In this document: one piece after another, positions 22,194-49,000 of the stretch | Layout: the number at the start of each line of letters is the position of its first letter | Position numbering within the stretch: the stretch's first letter is position 1 | From: a virus | Length of the DNA: 52,885 nucleotides | Direction: 5' to 3' (one strand) | IMG/VR virus record: IMGVR_UViG_3300008952_003486 | Location: 1 to 52,885 of that record | The notes under the pieces: model-generated | The model's database searches: none | What the model saw: only the letters and a program-made list of their open reading frames with translations | Told to the model about the DNA's origin: nothing | Translations under genes and position numbers: made by a program

Positions 22194-23279
22194 TTATGCC
22201 CGACCATATGAATCTTCATAGCGAACAATATCATCCTCGCCAAAATATTCACCTGTCTGAACTTCTATAAAAACTAAATCTTCTTTTCCACGATTCTCAA
22301 TTCTATGTTTTTCTTTTTTCTCTATCACTGTATTATCTCCTGGTTTCAAACAAAACAACTGCAAGGGTTCTTCGTTACACACATTATCCTTCTCGACCGT
22401 TCCGCTACCTTGCACGACAACCCACGTTTCTTTGCGGTGATCGTGTGACTGCAAACTGAGTTTATGTCCAGGTCTAACAATTATTTTCTTGACCTTGCAC
22501 TCTTCGCCATCATATAGAACGTGGTATTCACCCCATGGTCTTACGCCATCTTCTTCCACTTGTTCGCCCCCTTTCATGGAATTGAAAACCTTTTTTTTCA
22601 ACTTTGTCGCGGACCAACCATGGTTGCGCGAAATAAAAACAATCGGGTGCTGCAAGTCACTGCCCGTATAATTTCTGCCCTTGTAGTCTTCTCCCAGAAA
22701 TCTAACATCTATATGATTTTCGGAAAGATAATCATACAATTCTTCCTCTGTTTCATATTCAAAAATCTCGTTCACATGCCTCAAAGATAAAAGCATTTCT
22801 CTTCTTTCGCTCACGCTCAACACTGGTTTTAACTTCTCACTCCTTTCTCTTGTGGGATCCACGTGTAGACCTACGACCAGATGATTACAGTGTTCTGATG
22901 CATCTTTAAAGCAGCGTATATATCCTGGATGTATAATATCGAAGGATCCTGCGATAAATCCTTTTTTTACCGGAGTGAATTCTCCCCTCCAATCATCTAT
23001 GTGTATGCACTTATCGTCAATAAAAATATCTGCATGTGGTTTTTTATTTGTAATCAATTCATGATATTTAAAACCCCAACCATCTAACTGTCGAGTCGTT
23101 TGGATAGTCCAATCTCTGCCAGAAACTGAACCGCGGGCAGTCATAAATAATATGGTATTTCCCTCCTCATAAAGTTGATTGATGCGCCTTCTAACATCCT
23201 CAAAAGGTTTGGCATCCATATAATTGCTGTCCTCCTCAAGGGAGCATATCGTACCATCTATATCAAAACAGTATATCAT
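22194..23279 (-). CDS. Three-domain sugar enzyme: HAD phosphatase - nucleotidylyltransferase - phosphomannose isomerase cupin
   Basis: 361 residues. Residues 1-100 are a HAD phosphatase (catalytic D6-I-D8-GT, MTAR near 47-50, IDDK 87-90). Residues 106-235 are an HxGH-type nucleotidylyltransferase (AGSFDIIHPGY with a His-Pro-Gly-Tyr variant at 117-120, and SATKLKKK near 223 in the place of ISxTxxR). Residues 246-361 are a type II mannose-6-phosphate isomerase cupin (RPWGEYHVL, LSLQSHDHRKETWVVV, YFGEDDIVRYEDSYGR) like the ManC C-terminus. It follows a GmhA-like isomerase and an HddA-like kinase, so phosphatase plus nucleotidylyltransferase could finish NDP-heptose. The cupin could supply mannose-6-phosphate for GDP-mannose. 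Substrates of the first two domains are inference. Confidence 0.85.
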   Translation of the reverse strand: MIYCFDIDGTICSLEEDSNYMDAKPFEDVRRRINQLYEEGNTILFMTARGSVSGRDWTIQTTRQLDGWGFKYHELITNKKPHADIFIDDKCIHIDDWRGEFTPVKKGFIAGSFDIIHPGYIRCFKDASEHCNHLVVGLHVDPTRERSEKLKPVLSVSERREMLLSLRHVNEIFEYETEEELYDYLSENHIDVRFLGEDYKGRNYTGSDLQHPIVFISRNHGWSATKLKKKVFNSMKGGEQVEEDGVRPWGEYHVLYDGEECKVKKIIVRPGHKLSLQSHDHRKETWVVVQGSGTVEKDNVCNEEPLQLFCLKPGDNTVIEKKEKHRIENRGKEDLVFIEVQTGEYFGEDDIVRYEDSYGRA

Positions 23280-23786
23280 CTAAACCGCCGAATGTAAAAA
23301 TGCTTGGTGGGCGCACTCGACCACCCCATAATCTGTGGAGTCTACCCAATATTCTAGTTTGCAAAGATTAGACTTCTTCGCCAAACTTCTGCAAGAATTA
23401 TATTCATCAAACCCGGTCAACATAATAAAGGTAGTTTGACTCTCCAGGCAGTAATTTACACAACCAACAATATTGTCAGATCTCCCAGATGAAGAAATTA
23501 AAATTACCAAAGTGTCAGAATCGCTAAACTCCTTTAGGAATTGAGAAAATGCATTTTCAATTCCGTAATCATTTATATAACAAGTAAGTCTAGACGGGTC
23601 AGAAAAAGAAAAAGACTTTTTTCCCAACTTCTTGGTATAATCTTGCGATATGTGCGAAGCGATAGAATTGCTTCCTCCATTACCTATTATAACAACTTTT
23701 GAATAAGATTTTAAGAGAAACTCTAATTCTTCAATCTTTTTCTTTGGAATATCCTCCAATGCTCCTATGAGTTCCTTCATTATCAT
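23280..23786 (-). CDS. SIS-domain sugar-phosphate isomerase, GmhA-like
   Basis: 168 residues, ATG 23786 overlapping the upstream kinase stop (ATGA). It has the SIS sugar-phosphate-binding features: VVIIGNGGSNSIASHISQDYTKKLGKK near residues 31-57 and VILISSSGRSDNIVGCVNYC near residues 93-112. The GNGGS..A.H...D pattern is that of GmhA, which converts sedoheptulose 7-phosphate to D-glycero-D-manno-heptose 7-phosphate. It is slightly shorter than bacterial GmhA (about 190). The next genes on either side (GHMP kinase, HAD/nucleotidylyltransferase) match the following steps of the heptose pathway. Confidence 0.82.
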   Translation of the reverse strand: MIMKELIGALEDIPKKKIEELEFLLKSYSKVVIIGNGGSNSIASHISQDYTKKLGKKSFSFSDPSRLTCYINDYGIENAFSQFLKEFSDSDTLVILISSSGRSDNIVGCVNYCLESQTTFIMLTGFDEYNSCRSLAKKSNLCKLEYWVDSTDYGVVECAHQAFLHSAV

Positions 23787-24718
23787 ATATTTATGTCCCT
23801 TACGCCCTCTTCGCTGATGCTGATTGGAATAAATTTCTTACCTCTGATCTCTGATCTTGAAAACACCAAAAAGAATCCTCCGCCGCCGGCACCACACAGT
23901 TTATGGGCGGCGGCATCTCTATTTCCACAAAGATATTTGTCAATCTCCATAACGCGAGGGTTGTTTGCTATGGATGAAGAAGTTTCTTTTTTCTTTGCCC
24001 AACCTTCGTTTATTATATTAAAAAAAGCGTCCTCGTCGTTTCGGATTATTGCACCCTCTAAGTCGTCAACGAGTCCCATAAGAGGAACTCTCTTCTCTAG
24101 ATCTAAAGTTGACAAAACTTCAGTAGAAGATCTCGTAACGTCTGTTGGTAGAAGATACATATTGACATTATTGAAAATTTGCTGAGATAGATATGTGAAT
24201 TTTGGATCTTTCTCCTTATCGAAATCAATTCGTTTCAGAGATCCGATGCCACATCCATATACGTCCTGATATCCAGTGCGAGAATTAAATTTTTTTTCAA
24301 TCTGCAACGAAATTTTACAGACCTCTGAATCTGATAAACTAATTTTTTTAAATTTTGAAACTGCCCTCACCAAAGAAATGGTATAGGAAGAAGAGGATGC
24401 AAGACCGGAACCAGATGAGATTATATCTGAGGAAAAAGTACACGTCACTTGTTCGCATTGAAAATATTTCAGGACTTCCCTGGCAACATCGTTTTTTATG
24501 CTGCCTATGCTGTCATGCTCTTCTCTCTTGGTATAATTTATAATATATTTTCCATACATTTTATTATATCCCAATACGTCCGACGATATCATGATGTAGG
24601 TATATAAATTAACAGGGAAATTTATAACCGATCCGGCGCCGTAGTGATCTATAAAATCCTGCAAATCTGTCGATCCTCCCACCAAAGATATTCTCAAGGG
24701 GCACTTAGTTATTATCAT
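23783..24718 (-). CDS. GHMP sugar kinase, HddA-like (heptose-7-phosphate kinase)
   Basis: 311 residues, ATG 24718, overlapping the previous gene by 14 nt. GHMP motifs are clear: N-terminal CPLRISLVGGSTDLQDF, the ATP-binding GSGLASSSSYTISLVRA near residue 107, and the C-terminal LCGAGGGGFFLVFS near residue 279. The overall pattern resembles D-glycero-D-manno-heptose 7-phosphate kinase (HddA), which phosphorylates C1. Pairing with a GmhA-like isomerase supports this. Fucokinase-type or other sugar kinases of the same superfamily remain possible. Confidence 0.82.
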   Translation of the reverse strand: MIITKCPLRISLVGGSTDLQDFIDHYGAGSVINFPVNLYTYIMISSDVLGYNKMYGKYIINYTKREEHDSIGSIKNDVAREVLKYFQCEQVTCTFSSDIISSGSGLASSSSYTISLVRAVSKFKKISLSDSEVCKISLQIEKKFNSRTGYQDVYGCGIGSLKRIDFDKEKDPKFTYLSQQIFNNVNMYLLPTDVTRSSTEVLSTLDLEKRVPLMGLVDDLEGAIIRNDEDAFFNIINEGWAKKKETSSSIANNPRVMEIDKYLCGNRDAAAHKLCGAGGGGFFLVFSRSEIRGKKFIPISISEEGVRDINI

Positions 24719-27385: not shown

Positions 27386-27599
27386 AAAATTCTCCGGCAT
27401 CATCAACTGATTCGCAAGTCTTGATCTCAGGGGCTGCATCGCTCATAATAATGACGCATGGACGCTTCTTGATCTCTTCTGTAAATTTGTAGTACACTTT
27501 ATAGAATTCTGCTTCCGAAGCAATCTTAGTAAATGGAATGGGGGGATCGCCCGGACCATACGAGATCACATCCCAAAGTTCGTATCTTATTTCATTCAT
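27375..27599 (-). CDS. Hypothetical small protein in glycan locus
   Basis: 74 residues from ATG 27599, which overlaps the Gmd stop as ATGA. A longer upstream start would lie deep inside gmd and is not favoured. The sequence MNEIRYELWDVISYGPGDPP is followed by helical FYKVYYKFTEEIKKRPCVII and an acidic tail with two cysteines. I recognise no domain. Coupled translation with gmd and the next gene suggests it is expressed with the pathway. Confidence 0.6.
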   Translation of the reverse strand: MNEIRYELWDVISYGPGDPPIPFTKIASEAEFYKVYYKFTEEIKKRPCVIIMSDAAPEIKTCESVDDAGEFCEK

Positions 27600-28585
27600 G
27601 GGGTATGCTCCCCTCTTGGAATTTCGCACATCCACTTCTCAATCATCTCGTCTATCATCGTATCAAAAGTATACTCTGGTTGCCACCCCAACAATTCGCG
27701 TGCTTTGGAAGAGTCGCCCCTAAGATAATCAAGTTCTTCTGGTCTCATAAATCTCGGATCCTGTACGACATAATCCCTATAGTCCATTTCTAATTTCCTA
27801 AATACGGTTTCACACAAATCCCGCACTGAGTGGGTGTGCCCCGTAGCAACAATAAAATCGTCCGGGGTATCATGTTGTAAGATCATCGTCATAGATTTTG
27901 TGTAATCCTTAGAGTGCCCCCAATCGCGATAAGAATCTAGATTTCCAAGTTCCAACTTGGTTTTCAACCCTCTTTTAATTTCAACGGCCGTTTTAACAAC
28001 CTTGTTGGTAACAAAGTTTATTCCCCTTCGGGGAGATTCGTGATTAAAGAGAATACCATTGGACGCAAACAATTTGTAAGCATGCCTATAGTGCCTAACG
28101 AGATTATATCCTAAAACTTTCGAACATCCATATGGACTAACTGGATTCATGGGAGTCGCCAACCTCTGATATCCATCTTCATCAACTGAATTGCCGAACA
28201 TTTCTGAAGAGCTAGCTTGGTAAAATTTTGCTTCGGGACATATAGTTCTATAGGATTCCAATATATTTAAGACGCCCACAGCATTTGTCTGAATGGTAAA
28301 AGAAGGTACCTCAAAACTAATTCCAACATGACTCATGGCGCCAAGATTGTAGATCTCATGCGGCCGGACTTTCGATACGATCCGATTAAGAGAGTGGCAA
28401 TCTAATAGATCACCATAATGTGCTTTAATTTTTCCATTAAGGTGCTGCAACCTCGCATCTTGATTTTCTGCCACTGAGTGTCTCCGGACAACGCCATGAA
28501 CCTCATACCCCTCTTCCAAGAGATGTTCTGCTAAATAGCTACCGTCTTGACCGCTAATTCCAGTTATAAGTGCTTTCTTTTTCAT
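27596..28585 (-). CDS. gmd: GDP-mannose 4,6-dehydratase
   Basis: 329 residues, ATG 28585. Full-length-like Gmd with GISGQDGSYLAEHLLEEGYE, VVRRHS, NLGAMSHVGISFEVP, ASSSEMFGN, SPYGCSKVLGYNLVRHYR (catalytic Y..K), LFNHESPRRG, DSYRDWGHSKDY and RPEELDYLRGDSSKARELLGW. It converts GDP-D-mannose to GDP-4-keto-6-deoxy-D-mannose, the common precursor of GDP-L-fucose, GDP-colitose, GDP-perosamine and GDP-rhamnose. The next two upstream genes (ColD-like and fucose-synthase-like) define the branch. GDP-mannose itself must come from the host, since no phosphomannomutase or GDP-mannose pyrophosphorylase is visible here. Confidence 0.95.
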   Translation of the reverse strand: MKKKALITGISGQDGSYLAEHLLEEGYEVHGVVRRHSVAENQDARLQHLNGKIKAHYGDLLDCHSLNRIVSKVRPHEIYNLGAMSHVGISFEVPSFTIQTNAVGVLNILESYRTICPEAKFYQASSSEMFGNSVDEDGYQRLATPMNPVSPYGCSKVLGYNLVRHYRHAYKLFASNGILFNHESPRRGINFVTNKVVKTAVEIKRGLKTKLELGNLDSYRDWGHSKDYTKSMTMILQHDTPDDFIVATGHTHSVRDLCETVFRKLEMDYRDYVVQDPRFMRPEELDYLRGDSSKARELLGWQPEYTFDTMIDEMIEKWMCEIPRGEHTP

Positions 28586-28613: not shown

Positions 28614-29762
28614 TTATGATTTGACATTAATTATGTCTGCAACTGTTCTTATTTGACTATTAGTTAGTTGCGGATGATTGGGGACATAAAACCCATATTT
28701 ATCTACCCGAGAAACATTTGGCAATACAAGTTTTCCGTATTTCTTCACATAAAAAGGTTGAGTACCCATCGAACCACAGATAAGTGGACGCACCTCAACT
28801 TGATTTTTTTGAAGTTCTTTCACCATTGCATCCCTGTGGGGATGTATCACAGGATAAGCAAAATTAGAAATGAATGATCCTGATCGTGGACTTGGTTTCC
28901 AGTAATCATTATCCACTAACCGCTGGTATGTTAAGAAATTTTCTTGGCGAATGGCGCCCCATTCGTCTAACTTATCTATTTGACCCATCCCAATAAATGC
29001 CTGTAGGTCAGTGGATCTTAAATTATAGGCAGGATAGTAAAAAGTATAAAGTGAATTAAAATCGGATACGCTCCATTCTTTTTGTAATTTATGTTGTGAT
29101 TCCTTGCTCAAATCTCTCCCCCACCCATGACTGCGCAGGGAAACCAACAATTCATATAATTCTTTGTTGTCAGTCGATACAAACCCTCCCTCAATAGTAG
29201 AAATGTGGTGCCCAAAGTAAGTTGAAAAGGATGATATCTCTCCGAAAGTTCCTAGTTTCTTGCCCCCCAATTCGCACCCCATTGATTCACATGTATCCTC
29301 TAGCAATACCACCCCATACTCGTCACATAATTTTTTTACCCTTATCATATCGGGCACCAATCCCAAAACCGAAACAAACATCAAGGCTGCCGGATTTGAT
29401 TCCTGAAATATTTTTTCCACCTGATCCAAATCAACGCTTAGATCATCCATATTGCAATCACACAGGATGGGTTCTAGCCCCAGTTGCATCACAGGAGATA
29501 GGTCGGTCGGCCATGCAAGAGATGGAACAACTATCTTATCATTTCGTAAGTATTGACCCTCCTTGAGAGCGGCGAGCATCAGAAGATTGGCAGAAGAACC
29601 CGAATTGCAAAAAATTGAATATTTCCTCCCAATCCATTCAGACCACTTCTTCTCCAAACTGAGAGTTACTGGACCTTTCGTTAACCGAGGGTAGGTTTGC
29701 AACCAATTAATAAGTTGGTCGATATCGCTCTTGTCTATTGTGTCTTTTACCAAGGTTATCAT
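28614..29762 (-). CDS. colD: GDP-4-keto-6-deoxymannose 3-dehydratase, ColD-like (DegT fold)
   Basis: 382 residues, ATG 29762 overlapping its upstream neighbour (ATGA-type). DegT/DnrJ/EryC1 fold with FCNSGSSANLLML, VPSLAWPTDLSP, LLEDTCESMGCELGGKKLG and FSTYFGHHISTIEGGFVST. The residue six before the EGG glutamate, normally the PLP-binding lysine, is His185. Replacement of that lysine by histidine is the hallmark of ColD (and of the related CDP-sugar 3-dehydrase), which removes the C3 hydroxyl instead of transferring an amine to C4. Adjacent Gmd provides its substrate. A GDP-perosamine synthase would need the lysine and is rejected. Confidence 0.85.
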   Translation of the reverse strand: MITLVKDTIDKSDIDQLINWLQTYPRLTKGPVTLSLEKKWSEWIGRKYSIFCNSGSSANLLMLAALKEGQYLRNDKIVVPSLAWPTDLSPVMQLGLEPILCDCNMDDLSVDLDQVEKIFQESNPAALMFVSVLGLVPDMIRVKKLCDEYGVVLLEDTCESMGCELGGKKLGTFGEISSFSTYFGHHISTIEGGFVSTDNKELYELLVSLRSHGWGRDLSKESQHKLQKEWSVSDFNSLYTFYYPAYNLRSTDLQAFIGMGQIDKLDEWGAIRQENFLTYQRLVDNDYWKPSPRSGSFISNFAYPVIHPHRDAMVKELQKNQVEVRPLICGSMGTQPFYVKKYGKLVLPNVSRVDKYGFYVPNHPQLTNSQIRTVADIINVKS

Positions 29763-30664
29763 ACGCTCCTCCTCTGCTTGCTGTAATCGTCATAAACTAG
29801 ACTGATCCCGTCAGATAATGAAGTAAACTTAAAGTCTTCTAACACAGATAACAACCTAGAAGAATCAACATCTTTTCTAAATTGTCCATCTGGATAATTG
29901 TTGTCATATTTTATGATTAAATTTTCCTTGTCGCATGCAAGGATTCCTATTTTTGCGATCTCATCAATACTGTGAACTTGCGCTGGAGCAACATTAAAAT
30001 TGCCACTTATTTCGTTTTCGATCACACATCTAATGACTCGCGCCAAGTCACCAGCATACATAAATTGCCTTAACGGTCTGCCGGTTCCCCACAACTCTAT
30101 GGACTCATTATTTTCATAGATTTTCCTAATAAGTGAGGAAACAAAGTGACTTTGTTTCTCTTCATACTTATCACCTTCGCCATACAAATTGCAAGGAATT
30201 AAATAAGACCACTTTTTCCCGAATTGGGAAACATAGGAGTCGATGTGCGTTGCCATGCATCTTTTCGAGAATCCATATGAAAAATTAGTTGCCGTTGGTG
30301 GACCGTTGAATAAATCCTCCTCGACCAGAGGATACTTGTCTGAATAATCAGGATACGCACAGGTGCTCAACATGCTTATTACCCTGTCAACGCCCTTGCG
30401 ATGGCAGCACCTCAAAATATTGGTATTCATTATTATATTGTGCTCCAGGAAATCGACTGGGTTATTGATATTATCAATAATGCCACCAACGCGCGCAGCA
30501 AGATGAACAACCACGCTAGGATTATGCTCTTCCAACATGTTTGCTACGTCATCCATAACCAATAAGTCGTATTCTTGTGAGGAGACATATGCCGCGGTGG
30601 GGAGAACCTTTTTTAAACTTTTCCCTACCAATCCACTACCACCAGTAACTAAGATATTAGACAT
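29759..30664 (-). CDS. GDP-L-colitose synthase / GDP-L-fucose synthase-like epimerase-reductase
   Basis: 301 residues, ATG 30664. GDP-fucose-synthase family motifs: VTGGSGLVGKSL, HLAARVGGIIDN, STCAYPDY, the catalytic YGFSK pair, HFVSSLIRKIY, WGTGRPLRQFMYAGDLA and DGQFRKDVDSSRL. This family 3,5-epimerises and 4-reduces GDP-4-keto-6-deoxymannose to GDP-L-fucose. ColC does the equivalent C5 epimerisation and reduction on the 3-deoxy intermediate. Since the ColD-like gene overlaps it, a ColC role giving GDP-L-colitose is favoured, though GDP-L-fucose synthesis cannot be excluded by sequence reading. Confidence 0.82.
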   Translation of the reverse strand: MSNILVTGGSGLVGKSLKKVLPTAAYVSSQEYDLLVMDDVANMLEEHNPSVVVHLAARVGGIIDNINNPVDFLEHNIIMNTNILRCCHRKGVDRVISMLSTCAYPDYSDKYPLVEEDLFNGPPTATNFSYGFSKRCMATHIDSYVSQFGKKWSYLIPCNLYGEGDKYEEKQSHFVSSLIRKIYENNESIELWGTGRPLRQFMYAGDLARVIRCVIENEISGNFNVAPAQVHSIDEIAKIGILACDKENLIIKYDNNYPDGQFRKDVDSSRLLSVLEDFKFTSLSDGISLVYDDYSKQRRSV

Positions 30665-30726: not shown

Positions 30727-31572
30727 TCATAATTTTACCCAACTGTCAGGAAATGCGTCTTCCAAACTATAGTGATCGTAAGCTGGTCCAAACCACTCAG
30801 TCTTGGGTGCCACAATTATTTTGTTTTGCGACGGGTTCAGATAGGATGCCCACCAGCTAAAAGTTGAGTTTCCTATCACATTGTGATCGCACATAGACAT
30901 TAAAGTAAAATCTTTTATGTTATTTAACTCGTTATCGATAGGAATAAAATCAACATTAATATCTTTCAACACATTACCGGCAGAATCTAAATCGCCCGAA
31001 AAAAGAAGTATGTTATAATCTTCCATCTTTTTACTCTCTTTCGTGCTAATGATATCCAAAGATTTTTTATAAAAATCACTTGAAACATTTTTGTAAAAAT
31101 GCTGAATCTGTGGTTGGCTCTTGTGGAGATTGTAATCTCTATAATGAAGTGCTATGGTGCTTTTCCTAAAGAGGTGTCTATATTTCTCTCTCATGTGATT
31201 TATATTTCTCTTGCTTATTTCAAATTCTTCTAGCATGTTTACACCACTGAAATACTTCTCAGATTGGTAATATCCATTATAGCAGATATCAATGTCCACT
31301 GGCAAAGGCATATAATGATGTGCGGCGCCTGTTTGGCAATGATGCTGATATTGGCGCATGTGTGACTCATCATATTCTATATCAGAAAAGTATGTAAATT
31401 TGTTATCAAAGAGGGCATCAAACTCTAATTCTGCATGTCCAAGAATTTGAAGAGGTCGAGAAACTCTCCTCTTGATATAGTAGGGAATATTGTGAGTCTT
31501 ATGTAGGTTGTATAACATTGCAAATTGAAACAAGTTGTTGCCTAGGCCGCCGGCGAAATTGCAAGTAATCAT
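30727..31572 (-). CDS. GT11-type fucosyl/colitosyltransferase
   Basis: 281 residues, ATG 31572. It begins with the family 11 motif MITCNFAGGLGNNLFQFAML and ends with NSTFSWWASYLNPSQNKIIV.P..WF, as in bacterial alpha-1,2-fucosyltransferases. The GDP-binding motif, usually H.RRGDY, is here the shortened HYRDYN near residue 142. It would use a GDP-L-fucose-type donor. GDP-L-colitose is 3-deoxy GDP-L-fucose, and both upstream genes make such a donor. Acceptor unknown. No membrane segment or signal is seen, so it acts in the cytoplasm. Confidence 0.83.
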   Translation of the reverse strand: MITCNFAGGLGNNLFQFAMLYNLHKTHNIPYYIKRRVSRPLQILGHAELEFDALFDNKFTYFSDIEYDESHMRQYQHHCQTGAAHHYMPLPVDIDICYNGYYQSEKYFSGVNMLEEFEISKRNINHMREKYRHLFRKSTIALHYRDYNLHKSQPQIQHFYKNVSSDFYKKSLDIISTKESKKMEDYNILLFSGDLDSAGNVLKDINVDFIPIDNELNNIKDFTLMSMCDHNVIGNSTFSWWASYLNPSQNKIIVAPKTEWFGPAYDHYSLEDAFPDSWVKL

Positions 31573-32423
31573 AGTGTTTCTCCACTACCTCTCATATAGT
31601 TCAAGTACATATAATCTTCGGAAGTGTCCACAGAGATTGCTAATTTTAAATTCTTTTTTATACTTTCCATTTTTGAATAGTATAATTCCTCAGTCAGCGA
31701 TCCGATATCGTCCAATTCTTCTAAAAAGATTATTCCATCCTTATCAAAATAATCTCCTATATTTTTCATCCCCCAAAATATAGGGATCGTACCGGTGGCA
31801 AAACAATCAAGTACCTTTTCAGTGAATAGGTCATTATAATTATCATTTTCCATGGCAAAGGAAAACATGTAATCTTTTAATCCTAAAATTTTCCCCGATT
31901 CTAATCCGCCATCTGTCTCAATTGCGTGAGGCAGTTCCTTAGATCCAAATCCCCTCCCATAATGATCGGTGATGCCTGCATATTTCCCTATCATTTGTTG
32001 GCGGAACATATGCCCCGCGCACATCCTCTTGCTAGATCCTATAAATGATACTAGTTTGCTCTTGGAGTATATCTTCCTGTTCTGAATCCAAGGGACTGCG
32101 GGCGGATTAACAAATTTAAAAAACAAAGGATCCGTTTCGATGATTCTTCTATCGTGAGTAAAAATAAAGAGAAATTTTTCTCTGTATCTATCTATATTTC
32201 CTAAAACATTTTGAATGACCTGTGGGATTATAGAACTTGATTCCGCGATGTGGCCGTAGTTTTTCTTAGTAGGATCGCAGGGAATCTCAAGACCATTATC
32301 AATATGAATTGACACGGGTGCGCTCCCGTCGCGTACCCACTCTACATGATTGTTTTTGTTGAGGGACGATGAGCAGTTCTCATGTTGAAATCCTCCACCG
32401 ACCATATTAAATTTTACTTTCAT
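31569..32423 (-). CDS. GT10-type (alpha-1,3-fucosyltransferase-like) glycosyltransferase
   Basis: 284 residues from ATG 32423 (MKVKFNMVGGG), preceded by AAGAAGG at 6 nt. An in-frame start further upstream would read through a duplicated fragment of another gene. The C-terminal half has the GT10 signature: YMFSFAMEND...FTEKVLDCFATGTIPIFWG then YFDKDGIIFLEEL, very like Helicobacter FucT. The donor would be GDP-L-fucose or, in this context, GDP-L-colitose. It ends in a 4-nt overlap with the GT11 gene. Two different fucosyltransferase families side by side suggest a branched or doubly capped glycan. Confidence 0.82.
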   Translation of the reverse strand: MKVKFNMVGGGFQHENCSSSLNKNNHVEWVRDGSAPVSIHIDNGLEIPCDPTKKNYGHIAESSSIIPQVIQNVLGNIDRYREKFLFIFTHDRRIIETDPLFFKFVNPPAVPWIQNRKIYSKSKLVSFIGSSKRMCAGHMFRQQMIGKYAGITDHYGRGFGSKELPHAIETDGGLESGKILGLKDYMFSFAMENDNYNDLFTEKVLDCFATGTIPIFWGMKNIGDYFDKDGIIFLEELDDIGSLTEELYYSKMESIKKNLKLAISVDTSEDYMYLNYMRGSGETL

Positions 32424-32466
32424 GTGGCGCCTTCTTGAGAATAACAAAAAAAGAACAATGATCCAC
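32402..32466. repeat. 65-bp direct repeat, copy A (left of FkbM gene)
   Basis: The 65-bp segment matches 33150-33214 with 4 mismatches, same orientation. It holds the end of the methyltransferase reading (DHCSFFVILKKAPHESKI then stop) fused to the start of the GT10 gene (MKVKFNM). Here the GT10 start is functional and the methyltransferase end is a remnant. Confidence 0.85.
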
Positions 32467-42070: not shown

Positions 42071-43057
42071 CTAACACACTGTTTCAATAATCTTATGGCA
42101 TACTACGTATGGATCACAATTTGCTGCCGGTCTACGATCCTCCAAATATCCCTTTTCATCTCTCGCTACTTGCCACGGAATCCGGATGGAGGCGCCTCGG
42201 TCAGAAACGCCAGATCTAAATTCAGTAATTGAGCAAGTCTCGTGAAGTCCTGTGAGTCTGGCGTCGTTGTTGCTGCCATATGCCGAAATGTGCTCTGCAT
42301 GCTTCTCGCCCATCTTATCAATAGCTTTTGATATCGCAAAAAGTCCTCCAGGGTCTCTCATTGCCTTGGTTGAAAAATTGGCATGGCAGCCGGCGCCGTT
42401 CCAATCGCCTGGTACGGGTTTCGGGTCAAGACTAACAGTGACGAAATACTTAGCCGCTATCTTTTCCATCAACCATCGCGCCACCCAGATATCGTCCGAC
42501 ACTTTAAGCGGGTCAACTGCTCCCACTTGATATTCCCACTGCCCAAGCATAACTTCTGAGTTGATGCCTGTCATAGAGACGCCGGCAGTGATGCACGCAT
42601 CTAAGTGCTCTTGAGCAATATCTTCTCCAATGTTTCTTCCACAATAATAATCACCTTGAGGCGGCGGTTCACCTTCCTGTGGCCACCCTAGTGGGCGCCC
42701 AAACTGAAGCATTGTATATTCCTGCTCCAAACCAAACAAAGGTTCTTCTTCGTTTTCTACCATAATGCTTTCAAGATTAAACCTAGCATTTGTTTCGTGC
42801 GGAGTACCATCTATATTCATCACCTCGCACATTGCGATCTTGCCGCCACTTAGCGGATTATCATAAAGTCTGACTGGACTTAAAACACAGTCAGACTTAT
42901 CTCCTGGCGCCTGGTTCGTCGAAGACCCATCGAATCCCCATATAGGTACCTGAGATATGCCCACAATATCGCCCTTACCATCTATTACCTTCGTCTTACT
43001 CCTAAGTGCTGCTGTCGGCCGAGTTCCATCGACCCAAACATATTCAATCTTTTGCAT
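42071..43057 (-). CDS. Glutamine synthetase, type II (GSII, eukaryote/rhizobium-like)
   Basis: About 328 residues. The second of two adjacent ATGs (43057) has the better spacing to AGGAGG. It catalyses ATP-dependent glutamate plus ammonia to glutamine. All GSII landmarks are present: YVWVDGTRPT, WGFDGSSTNQAPGDKSDC (41-58), FGLEQEYT with two metal Glu (112, 114), NSEVMLGQWEYQVG (Glu169, Glu176), DWNGAGCHANFSTK (219-232), LHETCSITEF, DRGASIRIP (287-295) and YLEDRRPAANCDPYVV. This is the short decameric GSII class, not the usual bacterial GSI (about 470 aa). There is no insertion or break. A phage copy is unusual; it may supply amide nitrogen for nucleotides or relieve nitrogen limitation. Confidence 0.95.
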   Translation of the reverse strand: MQKIEYVWVDGTRPTAALRSKTKVIDGKGDIVGISQVPIWGFDGSSTNQAPGDKSDCVLSPVRLYDNPLSGGKIAMCEVMNIDGTPHETNARFNLESIMVENEEEPLFGLEQEYTMLQFGRPLGWPQEGEPPPQGDYYCGRNIGEDIAQEHLDACITAGVSMTGINSEVMLGQWEYQVGAVDPLKVSDDIWVARWLMEKIAAKYFVTVSLDPKPVPGDWNGAGCHANFSTKAMRDPGGLFAISKAIDKMGEKHAEHISAYGSNNDARLTGLHETCSITEFRSGVSDRGASIRIPWQVARDEKGYLEDRRPAANCDPYVVCHKIIETVC

Positions 43058-43065
43058 CATTCCTC

Positions 43066-46158: not shown

Positions 46159-46187
46159 AGGGTAGCACGATTGTCGAAGGATGTCAA
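46159..46187 (-). promoter_or_regulatory. Sigma70-type promoter for the small-gene cluster
   Basis: Minus strand TTGACA (46182-46187), 17 nt, TACCCT (46159-46164), after an A8 tract. The TGA inside the -35 box is the stop codon of the 938-aa gene. It lies 39 nt before the start of the helix-turn-helix gene in a 63-nt gap that has no other content. Confidence 0.65.
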
Positions 46188-49000
46188 GACTTTTTTTTAT
46201 TCTTGTTGTGGATGCTCCATGCGGTCGCGAACGCTCGCTCTTCATCGCCGGGATATTGATCCTTGATTTTCATCATTTCTTCCTCTGAAAAACCGGGAGG
46301 CGCTGCTTCTTGCATAAGTTCGTCGCCGCCCTGCTCCTTCTCATATTCGGCAGTAGTGGGTTCAACCTCGCTAGCAGCCAACTCCGCTTCGAATTTATCA
46401 AAATAAAGTTTTAGATTAGTCAACAAATAATCATAAAATAAATCTTGATCTTTTTCATCATCTAATACTGCATATGCATCCAATATTATTCTCTCTATCC
46501 TATCAAAAGAATTAATTGCTTTATTGCGCCCGGTCAAGTCTTCTCCCGGCAACGTTTCGAATGCATTCTCCTCCTCTTCTGCCGCAGAGTCTTCGATATC
46601 AATAAATTTTTCCTCATCTGGATCATCTAAAGTTATATCGATATCCTCAGCTTCCGACAAGGATTCTGGTTCAATTTCATCTTCAGCACGGTCGATTGCT
46701 AAAGTATTAATTACTGCATTCAATATGTGACTACGATAAGAATTCCTCTGTTCTATGGAAGTAGTAAGAGACTTATATCCGACAGATAAGATAGGTACTA
46801 TTTTTTTGAGCATATCTGATAATTGATTGATTCCAGTATTAGCATGAGGTACTGGTTCTGTCTTCTCTTGGAGAATCATGTTTCGTATACATTTGCGCAA
46901 TGCATTCTCGACGCGGTATTTCTCAACCATGTCTTTTTGGCGCTCGTTAATGTAGATGATGCCTGACTTTTTATTCTTGTCTATGCTTCTGCTAAGTCTC
47001 TTTTGAATTAACTCTCTCAGTTTCATTTCTACTATTATTTCTTCTCTCATAATCATTCCCTCTTGTCTAATTAGAGTTGGTTCTTCGTTATCGCCAGAAT
47101 AACCCTGGACACTTCCACCTGACATAGCAGATATCTCTTCGAGGTCTTCGCCCGGATCGTTTAATCTACTTAAAACCAACTGGTGGATTTCCTCATCCCT
47201 AAATCCCATTATTTTCTCAAATTCGTCTAGATCGGACCTTTCTAGAGATTGCCTCAGTGTTGTCCCGCTCATTTCCCCAAATCCTTCTATTTCCCTGCTA
47301 ACATGCGGTGCCACCATTATTTTCCACTCATATCCGTCTTTTGTGATTCCGGATGTCTTAGAAAACCGCGGGTCTTCATCCATATCCTTTTCGCCAACAA
47401 AGTATGTGATATCAACTTCATCTGTGTCAAAATTTTGTAAAATCTCAACAGCATTATAGGGATTCTTTACTTGCACAATCTTATCCCCAGGAATCCCATG
47501 CGCTAGCATAATTTCTCTCTTCTCATCATATGAGAATGGAGATTTTGGAAAGTCTACTTTATTTGATGTCGCGACATAGACATTTTCTTCGCCATACTTG
47601 TTCGCAATTTTCCGATAAGTGTCCGCATGATGCTTGCCCATGGGTTGAAATCTTCCTGGGTATACGTAGATTTTTTCTTTTTCGTCTCCTAGTACCATAT
47701 CTCCGTCATCGGTAATTATAATATCCTCGTCATCGAATCCGTCGAAATCTTCCCCTTCATCTAATTTTTGAAGAGGAGGAACGTTTCCTCTCCCATACTT
47801 GAATAGTCCCAGAATTTGATTGACTGGGGCAAAAGTACCTGTAAACTTATAAGTGCTGCCGTCGTAGTCGAACACAAATCCTTCGGTTGCTGTAGATACA
47901 TTTTCTAAATCTTTCAATTTTCCCATTTGCCGTGAAAGTATTTCCATTGCCTCTTCGTTTCCGGAATCCTCAATAGCGCTTTTTGCTAATGTGACTTCAT
48001 CCTTCAGTCTCTTGACTTCCTTTTTGTTGTCGAGCAGGTAACGACTTTCTAGTCCGCGCAACATCTCTACTGCGAAATCATGTACTATATCTTCAATAGG
48101 ATAGATAATTTCTTTGAAGAAAAATTTATTACGCTCAACCATTTCTTGAACTATGCTAAGTGCTTGCCCATCATCTTCTGGAATTTTTGCTCTAATTTGC
48201 GTTATTGATGGCGCGCCTTTTTGCCCCAAAACCCTCTTAAGGAGCATGTCTTTTACCTCTTCTTCTAAGTTTGGCAAAAGATCATCAATTGTCCTTCTGG
48301 CAGTCTTTACTATATAGTCTCCGATAGTATCGCTATTGTCTAGATCGTTGCTACTCATAAATTTATCTAGGCGAGTCGTCGCTTCAGTTAGCGCAACATC
48401 ATCAGAGAGAGAGTCTAGATTTCTAATGGCGTTCACCTGAACCTTATATTCATCTTGTGCTTGTGCATTTTGCATGCTTTCGAGGGCGCCTTCTAATTCT
48501 GCAACCAATTCTTCATTTTGAAGTGGTTCGATTTTGCCGCTTTGCTTATCTCGTTGCACATGACCAACACGATGAATGACTAGACTTTTGGTATCATAAT
48601 TAATCACATTCGCCGAACTCGGATTCATTATTTCCGCATTATAAAAATTGTTAGCGTCCGGACCAAACAACTGTAGTTGGGTTTCAATCGGGAGAGATTC
48701 AACTGCCCTCTCGAAAGCATCAAAACTTTCGACGAACGTCTCCGTCAAGTTCCCTCTATCCGCAAACTTCAGAGCGAGTTCCTCCGGAGAAAGTCCGCCG
48801 GCAGACGCTTCGCCTTTGTTTCGCACAGCGCGCGCCTCGCGCTTTCGCACACTATAAGAGACGAACAGATTCTGTCCGTCCGTCTTTTCAGTTCCCAACA
48901 ACTCTCCACTAGATGCTTTGCTGAAGATATCCTTTATCTGACCAAAGGTCAAATTTGGGTTATCATTGAGGTGCATCATATGTCCGGCGAACCCTCCCAT
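46184..49000 (-). CDS. Fusion of ligase-like nucleotidyltransferase fold and HxGH nucleotidylyltransferase
   Basis: 938 residues, ATG 49000. The N-terminal region has the order of covalent nucleotidyltransferase motifs seen in ATP-dependent ligases: TEK39TDGQN (motif I KxDG), ARAVRNKGE, FYNAEIMNP near 119 (motif III-like), TEGFVFDYDG (372-381, motif IV-like) and K385 in YKFTG (motif V). Residues about 443-600 are an HxGH-type domain: YVYPGRFQPMGKHH (445-458, variant GKHH) and SGTTLRQSL (578-586). The last 300 residues are helical and acidic with a region beginning MREEIIVEMKLRELIQKRL. I infer a nucleic-acid or cofactor adenylylating enzyme. Substrate unknown; ligase activity unproved. Confidence 0.7.
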   Translation of the reverse strand: MGGFAGHMMHLNDNPNLTFGQIKDIFSKASSGELLGTEKTDGQNLFVSYSVRKREARAVRNKGEASAGGLSPEELALKFADRGNLTETFVESFDAFERAVESLPIETQLQLFGPDANNFYNAEIMNPSSANVINYDTKSLVIHRVGHVQRDKQSGKIEPLQNEELVAELEGALESMQNAQAQDEYKVQVNAIRNLDSLSDDVALTEATTRLDKFMSSNDLDNSDTIGDYIVKTARRTIDDLLPNLEEEVKDMLLKRVLGQKGAPSITQIRAKIPEDDGQALSIVQEMVERNKFFFKEIIYPIEDIVHDFAVEMLRGLESRYLLDNKKEVKRLKDEVTLAKSAIEDSGNEEAMEILSRQMGKLKDLENVSTATEGFVFDYDGSTYKFTGTFAPVNQILGLFKYGRGNVPPLQKLDEGEDFDGFDDEDIIITDDGDMVLGDEKEKIYVYPGRFQPMGKHHADTYRKIANKYGEENVYVATSNKVDFPKSPFSYDEKREIMLAHGIPGDKIVQVKNPYNAVEILQNFDTDEVDITYFVGEKDMDEDPRFSKTSGITKDGYEWKIMVAPHVSREIEGFGEMSGTTLRQSLERSDLDEFEKIMGFRDEEIHQLVLSRLNDPGEDLEEISAMSGGSVQGYSGDNEEPTLIRQEGMIMREEIIVEMKLRELIQKRLSRSIDKNKKSGIIYINERQKDMVEKYRVENALRKCIRNMILQEKTEPVPHANTGINQLSDMLKKIVPILSVGYKSLTTSIEQRNSYRSHILNAVINTLAIDRAEDEIEPESLSEAEDIDITLDDPDEEKFIDIEDSAAEEEENAFETLPGEDLTGRNKAINSFDRIERIILDAYAVLDDEKDQDLFYDYLLTNLKLYFDKFEAELAASEVEPTTAEYEKEQGGDELMQEAAPPGFSEEEMMKIKDQYPGDEERAFATAWSIHNKNKKKS

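What the first reader, a model, noticed from the sequence alone, without database searches (positions are those of the whole stretch)
22194..23279. Three enzymes in one chain: HAD phosphatase, nucleotidylyltransferase, phosphomannose-isomerase cupin
The domain order HAD (1-100), HxGH-type transferase with HPGY variant (106-235) and ManC-type cupin (246-361) is one I do not recognise as a standard architecture. The first two domains would complete a heptose pathway with the adjacent GmhA- and HddA-like genes. The third feeds GDP-mannose, hence the Gmd branch. It may compress two pathways into one gene.
Basis: partly seen in the sequence, partly recalled or inferred. Interest (0 to 1): 0.7.

Follow-up and report, generated by a model that had tools for sequence, protein, structure and literature searches.

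The report
Three-domain phage sugar-activation enzyme
A virus of bacteria carries one protein that joins a sugar phosphatase, a sugar-nucleotide transferase and a mannose-phosphate isomerase; the first two are a recurring phage fusion in what looks like a heptose cassette, and the third, attached only in this contig, would feed the neighbouring GDP-mannose pathway.

Summary
Minus-strand ORF 22194-23279 (361 aa) has a HAD domain (1-104), a cytidylyltransferase-fold domain with HPGY in place of HxGH (105-236) and a type II phosphomannose-isomerase cupin (242-361). Catalytic or metal-binding residues are conserved, apart from Y120 in the HxGH motif.

HAD-NTase is a recurrent viral fusion: I found 78 distinct proteins in uncultured viruses and in cyanophage SynMITS9220M01. 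In 58 of them it lies after the HddA-like kinase and GmhA-like isomerase and before an epimerase. In a cyanobacterium the same HAD is fused to GmhA. This supports the heptose reading.

The HAD is not GmhB. Its nearest solved relative is AfhF, a phage D-arabinose-1,5-bisphosphate phosphatase, so a pentose substrate stays possible and the nucleotide is unknown.

The two closest cupin relatives are separate genes directly after Gmd. The window's Gmd resembles GDP-mannose, not GDP-heptose, dehydratases, and its neighbours are ColD- and Fcl-like. The cupin therefore most likely supplies mannose-6-phosphate.

The triple fusion occurs in this contig only. A one-base error at the junction would split it.

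Verdict: new variant of a known kind, moderately interesting.

The parts
22194..23279 (-). 361-aa HAD-NTase-cupin fusion ORF
22968..23279 (-). HAD phosphatase domain (residues 1-104), AfhF-like; DxD D6/D8, T47, K80, D88/D89
22572..22967 (-). cytidylyltransferase-fold domain (105-236), HPGY motif at H117-Y120, SATK at 223-226
22539..22571 (-). linker (residues 237-247), pLDDT below 50 at 238-242
22197..22571 (-). type II phosphomannose isomerase cupin (237-361; Pfam 242-356), Q277/H279/E284/H325 and C-terminal EYFGEDDIVRYEDSYGR
22567..22598 (-). junction with homopolymers A8 (22591-22598) and G5 (22567-22571) and internal ATG (22575-22577); a one-base change in G5 would split the fusion
23280..23786 (-). 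GmhA-like SIS isomerase, 168 aa; H61/H180 kept, E65D and Q172E
23783..24718 (-). HddA-like GHMP kinase, 311 aa
24705..25607 (-). NAD-dependent epimerase; follows HAD-NTase in most relatives
27596..28585 (-). GDP-mannose 4,6-dehydratase (Gmd)
28614..29762 (-). ColD-type PLP 3-dehydratase (His-His where ColD has it)
29759..30664 (-). Fcl-like reductase/epimerase
30727..32447 (-). two fucosyltransferase-family genes (GT11, GT10)

Best explanation
A phage enzyme with three active sites serving two nucleotide-sugar routes of one surface-glycan cluster. GmhA-like isomerase and HddA-like kinase make a sugar 1,omega-bisphosphate, most likely D-glycero-D-manno-heptose 1,7-bisphosphate. The HAD domain removes the terminal phosphate, and the next domain joins the sugar 1-phosphate to a nucleotide (CTP or ATP more likely than GTP, inferred from fold), giving an NDP-heptose for the downstream epimerase. 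The cupin interconverts fructose-6-phosphate and mannose-6-phosphate; host mutase and guanylyltransferase would turn this into GDP-mannose for the phage Gmd, ColD-like and Fcl-like genes (a GDP-colitose or GDP-fucose type sugar) and the GT10/GT11 transferases. Shown: domains, conserved residues, recurring gene order, fusion to GmhA elsewhere, Gmd-adjacent cupin relatives. Inferred: all substrates, the nucleotide, the use of host steps, and co-function of the three sites.
For: 78 distinct HAD-NTase proteins, 58 with kinase+isomerase upstream and epimerase downstream; same cassette in isolate SynMITS9220M01. HAD fused to a GmhA domain (169 bits) in a cyanobacterial genome. P-SSM2 pairs the HAD with an HldE-type heptose kinase (148 bits). 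Isomerase hits GmhA, not KdsD, models; best kinase PDB hits are heptose kinases 3k85 and 4n3o. The two closest cupin relatives (62, 59%) and two more (51, 50%) directly follow Gmd, 16 others an Fcl-like gene; cyanophage S-SCSM1 has such an isomerase near Gmd/Fcl (PMC9602691). Window Gmd: 313 bits to GDP-mannose but 119 bits to GDP-heptose dehydratase. PLP gene best matches ColD.
Against: Nearest solved HAD relative is an arabinose-1,5-bisphosphate phosphatase. A cyanobacterial cassette keeps the NTase (53%) but has lost HAD motifs, so the phosphatase may be dispensable. NTase scores 52 and 46 bits against cutoffs of 165 and 182; second HxGH histidine is Tyr. No phosphomannomutase or GDP-mannose pyrophosphorylase was recognised in the genes scanned. 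No other triple fusion among 370 loci.
Confidence: 0.52

Rival explanations
1. The same anatomy works on a pentose: isomerase and kinase make D-arabinose 1,5-bisphosphate, the HAD makes arabinose 1-phosphate, the NTase an NDP-arabinose.
For: Nearest solved HAD is AfhF of phage HY126, titled D-arabinose 1,5-diphosphate phosphatase. The HAD is present in Tevenvirinae-type phages beside an arabinose-5-phosphate isomerase and thymidylate-synthase-like genes; RB69 DNA carries arabinosyl-hmC (PMC6024577).
Against: In those phages the isomerase is KpsF/KdsD type (96 bits) and the activating protein is a different fold; the window's isomerase and kinase match GmhA and HddA. No hydroxymethylase or thymidylate synthase was recognised in the window genes scanned.
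Confidence: 0.2
2. The cupin is not a phosphomannose isomerase here but acts on the sugar of the NTase, or is a non-catalytic dimerisation domain.
For: A second, independent NTase-cupin fusion (L167, L175, L177) lies among replication-type genes without Gmd. P-SSM2 and S-CAM3 have a different small cupin next to the HAD.
Against: PF01050 E 9e-32; Q/H/E/H ligands and the C-terminal signature conserved; closest relatives lie next to Gmd.
Confidence: 0.15
3. The fusion is a sequencing or assembly error: two adjacent genes, HAD-NTase and cupin, joined by one wrong base.
For: Join seen in one contig only; G5 run and GTG/ATG starts at the junction, and a one-base change in G5 gives a stop within about 16 codons. 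Natural ends of both proteins coincide with the junction.
Against: Frame is clean through 361 codons, and S234 just before the junction is near-invariant. NTase-cupin fusion exists elsewhere.
Confidence: 0.13

Closest known systems
HAD-NTase protein of Synechococcus phage SynMITS9220M01 (QJT70212.1, annotated hypothetical) and uncultured viral relatives
   Same: HAD and HPGY NTase in one chain, 47.5% identical over 235 residues, in the kinase-GmhA-HAD-NTase-epimerase order
   Different: no cupin
AfhF, phage HY126 D-arabinose 1,5-diphosphate phosphatase (PDB 9iqw)
   Same: small HAD, about 35% identity, same motifs
   Different: stand-alone; relatives in Tevenvirinae-type phages sit in a KdsD-type and DNA-modification context
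GmhA/HddA/GmhB/HddC GDP-heptose pathway of bacteria
   Same: isomerase and kinase homologs, same reaction logic
   Different: phosphatase and NTase come from other families and are fused
ManC (GMP/PMI), type II phosphomannose isomerase
   Same: C-terminal cupin domain
   Different: guanylyltransferase domain absent; replaced by HAD-NTase
Stand-alone type II isomerase of cyanophage S-SCSM1 (QFG06376.1)
   Same: cupin, near Gmd and Fcl
   Different: not fused

Membership tests
Type II phosphomannose isomerase (PF01050) | profile match above cutoff over the whole domain | tested here: met
   110 bits, cutoff 23.6, profile 9-116 of 116
Type II phosphomannose isomerase (PF01050) | cupin ligands QxH...E...H and C-terminal signature | tested here: met
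   Q277, H279, E284, H325, R353 conserved in at least 73 of 74
Type II phosphomannose isomerase (PF01050) | Fru6P/Man6P isomerase activity | not testable with these tools
   needs assay
ManC bifunctional GMP/PMI (TIGR01479) | guanylyltransferase domain | tested here: not met
   109 bits against cutoff 373; only profile 341-467 matched
GmhB heptose bisphosphate phosphatase | GmhB family profile match | tested here: not met
   no GmhB model among NCBIfam hits; GmhB structures rank 12 and below at E 0.014 or worse
AfhF-type phage HAD | sequence and fold similarity with HAD catalytic motifs | tested here: met
   phmmer E 5e-12, Foldseek rank 1 E 1e-5, motifs conserved
AfhF-type phage HAD | sugar 1,omega-bisphosphate phosphatase activity | not testable with these tools
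   needs assay
HldC/HldE-C (TIGR02199) or TagD (TIGR01518) nucleotidylyltransferase | equivalog cutoff | tested here: not met
   46.4 of 181.5 and 52.1 of 165.4 bits
HldC/HldE-C (TIGR02199) or TagD (TIGR01518) nucleotidylyltransferase | HxGH motif | tested here: not met
   HPGY; first His kept, second is Tyr, invariant in the fused clade
Cytidylyltransferase-like superfamily (PF01467) | profile match above cutoff | tested here: met
   48.6 bits, cutoff 21

The most novel reading that the evidence does not exclude
One phage polypeptide controls entry into two nucleotide-sugar pathways, and its heptose arm is a hybrid not described before, as far as I know: an HddA-type (alpha-anomer) kinase feeding an HPGY cytidylyltransferase-fold enzyme, giving a new nucleotide such as CDP- or ADP-alpha-heptose.
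Probability: 0.25. Interest if true: 0.6.

Novelty: new variant of a known kind. Interest (0 to 1): 0.42.

Why it matters
It shows that marine phages carry a compact, fused version of what is probably a nucleotide-heptose pathway, whose phosphatase and transferase differ from the bacterial ones, and that this pathway can be joined to GDP-mannose supply. It also shows that the small HAD labelled 'phosphoheptose isomerase' in phage databases is a phosphatase family shared by surface-glycan and DNA-arabinosylation modules, so its substrate range becomes directly testable.

Tried and rejected
Gmd as a GDP-heptose dehydratase (C. jejuni type 3,6-dideoxyheptose route, PMC10440746): rejected as first choice, 313 bits to GDP-mannose against 119 to GDP-heptose dehydratase. 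PLP gene as perosamine synthase: it is ColD-like. The fusion as common in bacteria: of 882 sampled genomes in three groups, one has HAD-NTase; no hit had the cupin, though only residues 1-236 were used as the query. Exact DNA across the junction in viral contigs: no match, but near copies of the window may be left out. Rfam on the window: nothing. Whole-model Foldseek against the PDB is dominated by cupins. No paper on 9iqw found. H281 as a metal ligand: rejected, Lys in 59 of 74 relatives. Metagenome contigs could not be scanned.

Full report
The observation. The ORF at 22194-23279 is real, on the minus strand, 361 aa, ATG start. Pfam gives a cytidylyltransferase-like domain at 109-199 and the mannose-6-phosphate isomerase cupin at 242-356; the HAD is weak in Pfam but clear in PHROGs (E 1.4e-24) and against PDB 9iqw (E 5e-12). 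AlphaFold2 predicts three confident domains (mean pLDDT 90.5) with a floppy linker at 238-242 and no confident packing between them (pTM 0.58). The window is a linear IMG/VR virus record with baseplate and late sigma-factor genes.

Catalytic residues. In 77 HAD relatives D6, D8, T47, K80, D88 and D89 are conserved in at least 73; in 74 cupins Q277, H279, E284 in at least 73 and H325, D349, R353 in all; in 96 NTases H117 in 95, and Y120 (the HPGY variant) in 76, the rest being His. In the fused clade Y120 is invariant. So all three domains look active, with one changed residue in the NTase motif that is a clade trait rather than a defect.

Distribution. The two-domain HAD-NTase protein is common in uncultured viruses: 78 distinct proteins were read, 58 with kinase and isomerase upstream and epimerase downstream; some of the rest lie at contig edges. 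Cyanophage SynMITS9220M01 has the same cassette, annotated as heptose kinase, phosphoheptose isomerase, hypothetical protein, heptose epimerase (PMC7378029). A 581-kb contig of a cyanobacterial genome carries it too, with a degenerate HAD. No second HAD-NTase-cupin protein was found among 370 loci, nor any phage record covering 80% of the query. An NTase-cupin fusion occurs in one other viral lineage and, on the NTase tree, lies in a different clade from the window, so cupin joining probably happened twice. The search lists were capped at 80 loci each and metagenomes were not scanned.

What the HAD is. Database labels call this HAD 'phosphoheptose isomerase'; it is a phosphatase family. The closest solved structure, 9iqw, is titled phage HY126 D-arabinose 1,5-diphosphate phosphatase AfhF, and 381 phage records hold the family, many of them Tevenvirinae-type phages. 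In KARL-1 it lies beside an arabinose-5-phosphate isomerase of the KpsF/KdsD type and a thymidylate-synthase-like gene; RB69 DNA is known to carry arabinosyl-hmC (PMC6024577). The window and its marine relatives instead pair it with a GmhA-type isomerase and HddA-type kinase, P-SSM2 with an HldE-type heptose kinase, and a cyanobacterium fuses it to GmhA. I infer a family of terminal phosphatases for sugar 1,omega-bisphosphates whose sugar follows the partner isomerase; here heptose is favoured over arabinose about 3 to 1. That ratio is my judgement.

What the cupin does. Its two closest relatives (62 and 59% identical) and two further ones (51 and 50%) are separate genes adjoining the end of Gmd, and 16 further cupins follow an Fcl-like gene. 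The window's Gmd is of the GDP-mannose kind, the PLP enzyme is closest to ColD with the His-His pair, and the next gene is Fcl-like, followed by GT11 and GT10 genes. A GDP-colitose or GDP-fucose type branch is thus likely, and the cupin would supply mannose-6-phosphate. No mutase or GDP-mannose pyrophosphorylase was recognised, so host enzymes are assumed.

The junction. Relatives of both halves end and begin just where this protein joins them. The near-invariant S234 shows that the frame is right through the A8 run; after it come ATG, AAA and a G5 run, and a single-base change in G5 would stop the first protein within about 16 codons while a GTG at 22557-22559 could start the cupin. The join is therefore credible but rests on one contig.

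Judgement. The novelty is smaller than thought, because two of the three domains are a recurrent viral fusion, and the enzymatic claims remain inferences.

Noticed in passing
phrog_1238; L201 6989-7333 (PSSM2_311) and about 380 phage records: The family labelled 'phosphoheptose isomerase' in phage annotation is a HAD phosphatase, not an isomerase.
   Followed up: yes
L201 7314-7670 (PSSM2_312), L208 8387-8746, L199 1975-2325: Genes annotated as nucleotidyltransferase or similar are small cupins (KGWGYEKWI...), next to the HAD in P-SSM2 and S-CAM3.
   Followed up: partly
L204 1480-2400: HAD fused to a GmhA domain in a cyanobacterial genome.
   Followed up: yes
L205 11826-12569: Cyanobacterial HAD-NTase with the HAD motifs lost while the NTase is kept.
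   Followed up: partly
L209 4120-5271: Fecal phage contig: HAD fused to an aminoglycoside-phosphotransferase-like domain (by eye), next to an NTase gene and a thymidylate-synthase-like gene; perhaps a DNA-modification module.
   Followed up: no
window 23280-23786: GmhA-like isomerase has paired changes E65D and Q172E (E. coli numbering, sequence recalled from memory), shared by most phage relatives.
   Followed up: partly
window 42071-43060: GlnII-type glutamine synthetase in a virus (456 bits, cutoff 500).
   Followed up: no
window 46184-49000: 938-aa protein of unknown function with only a weak cytidyltransferase match at 439-598.
   Followed up: no
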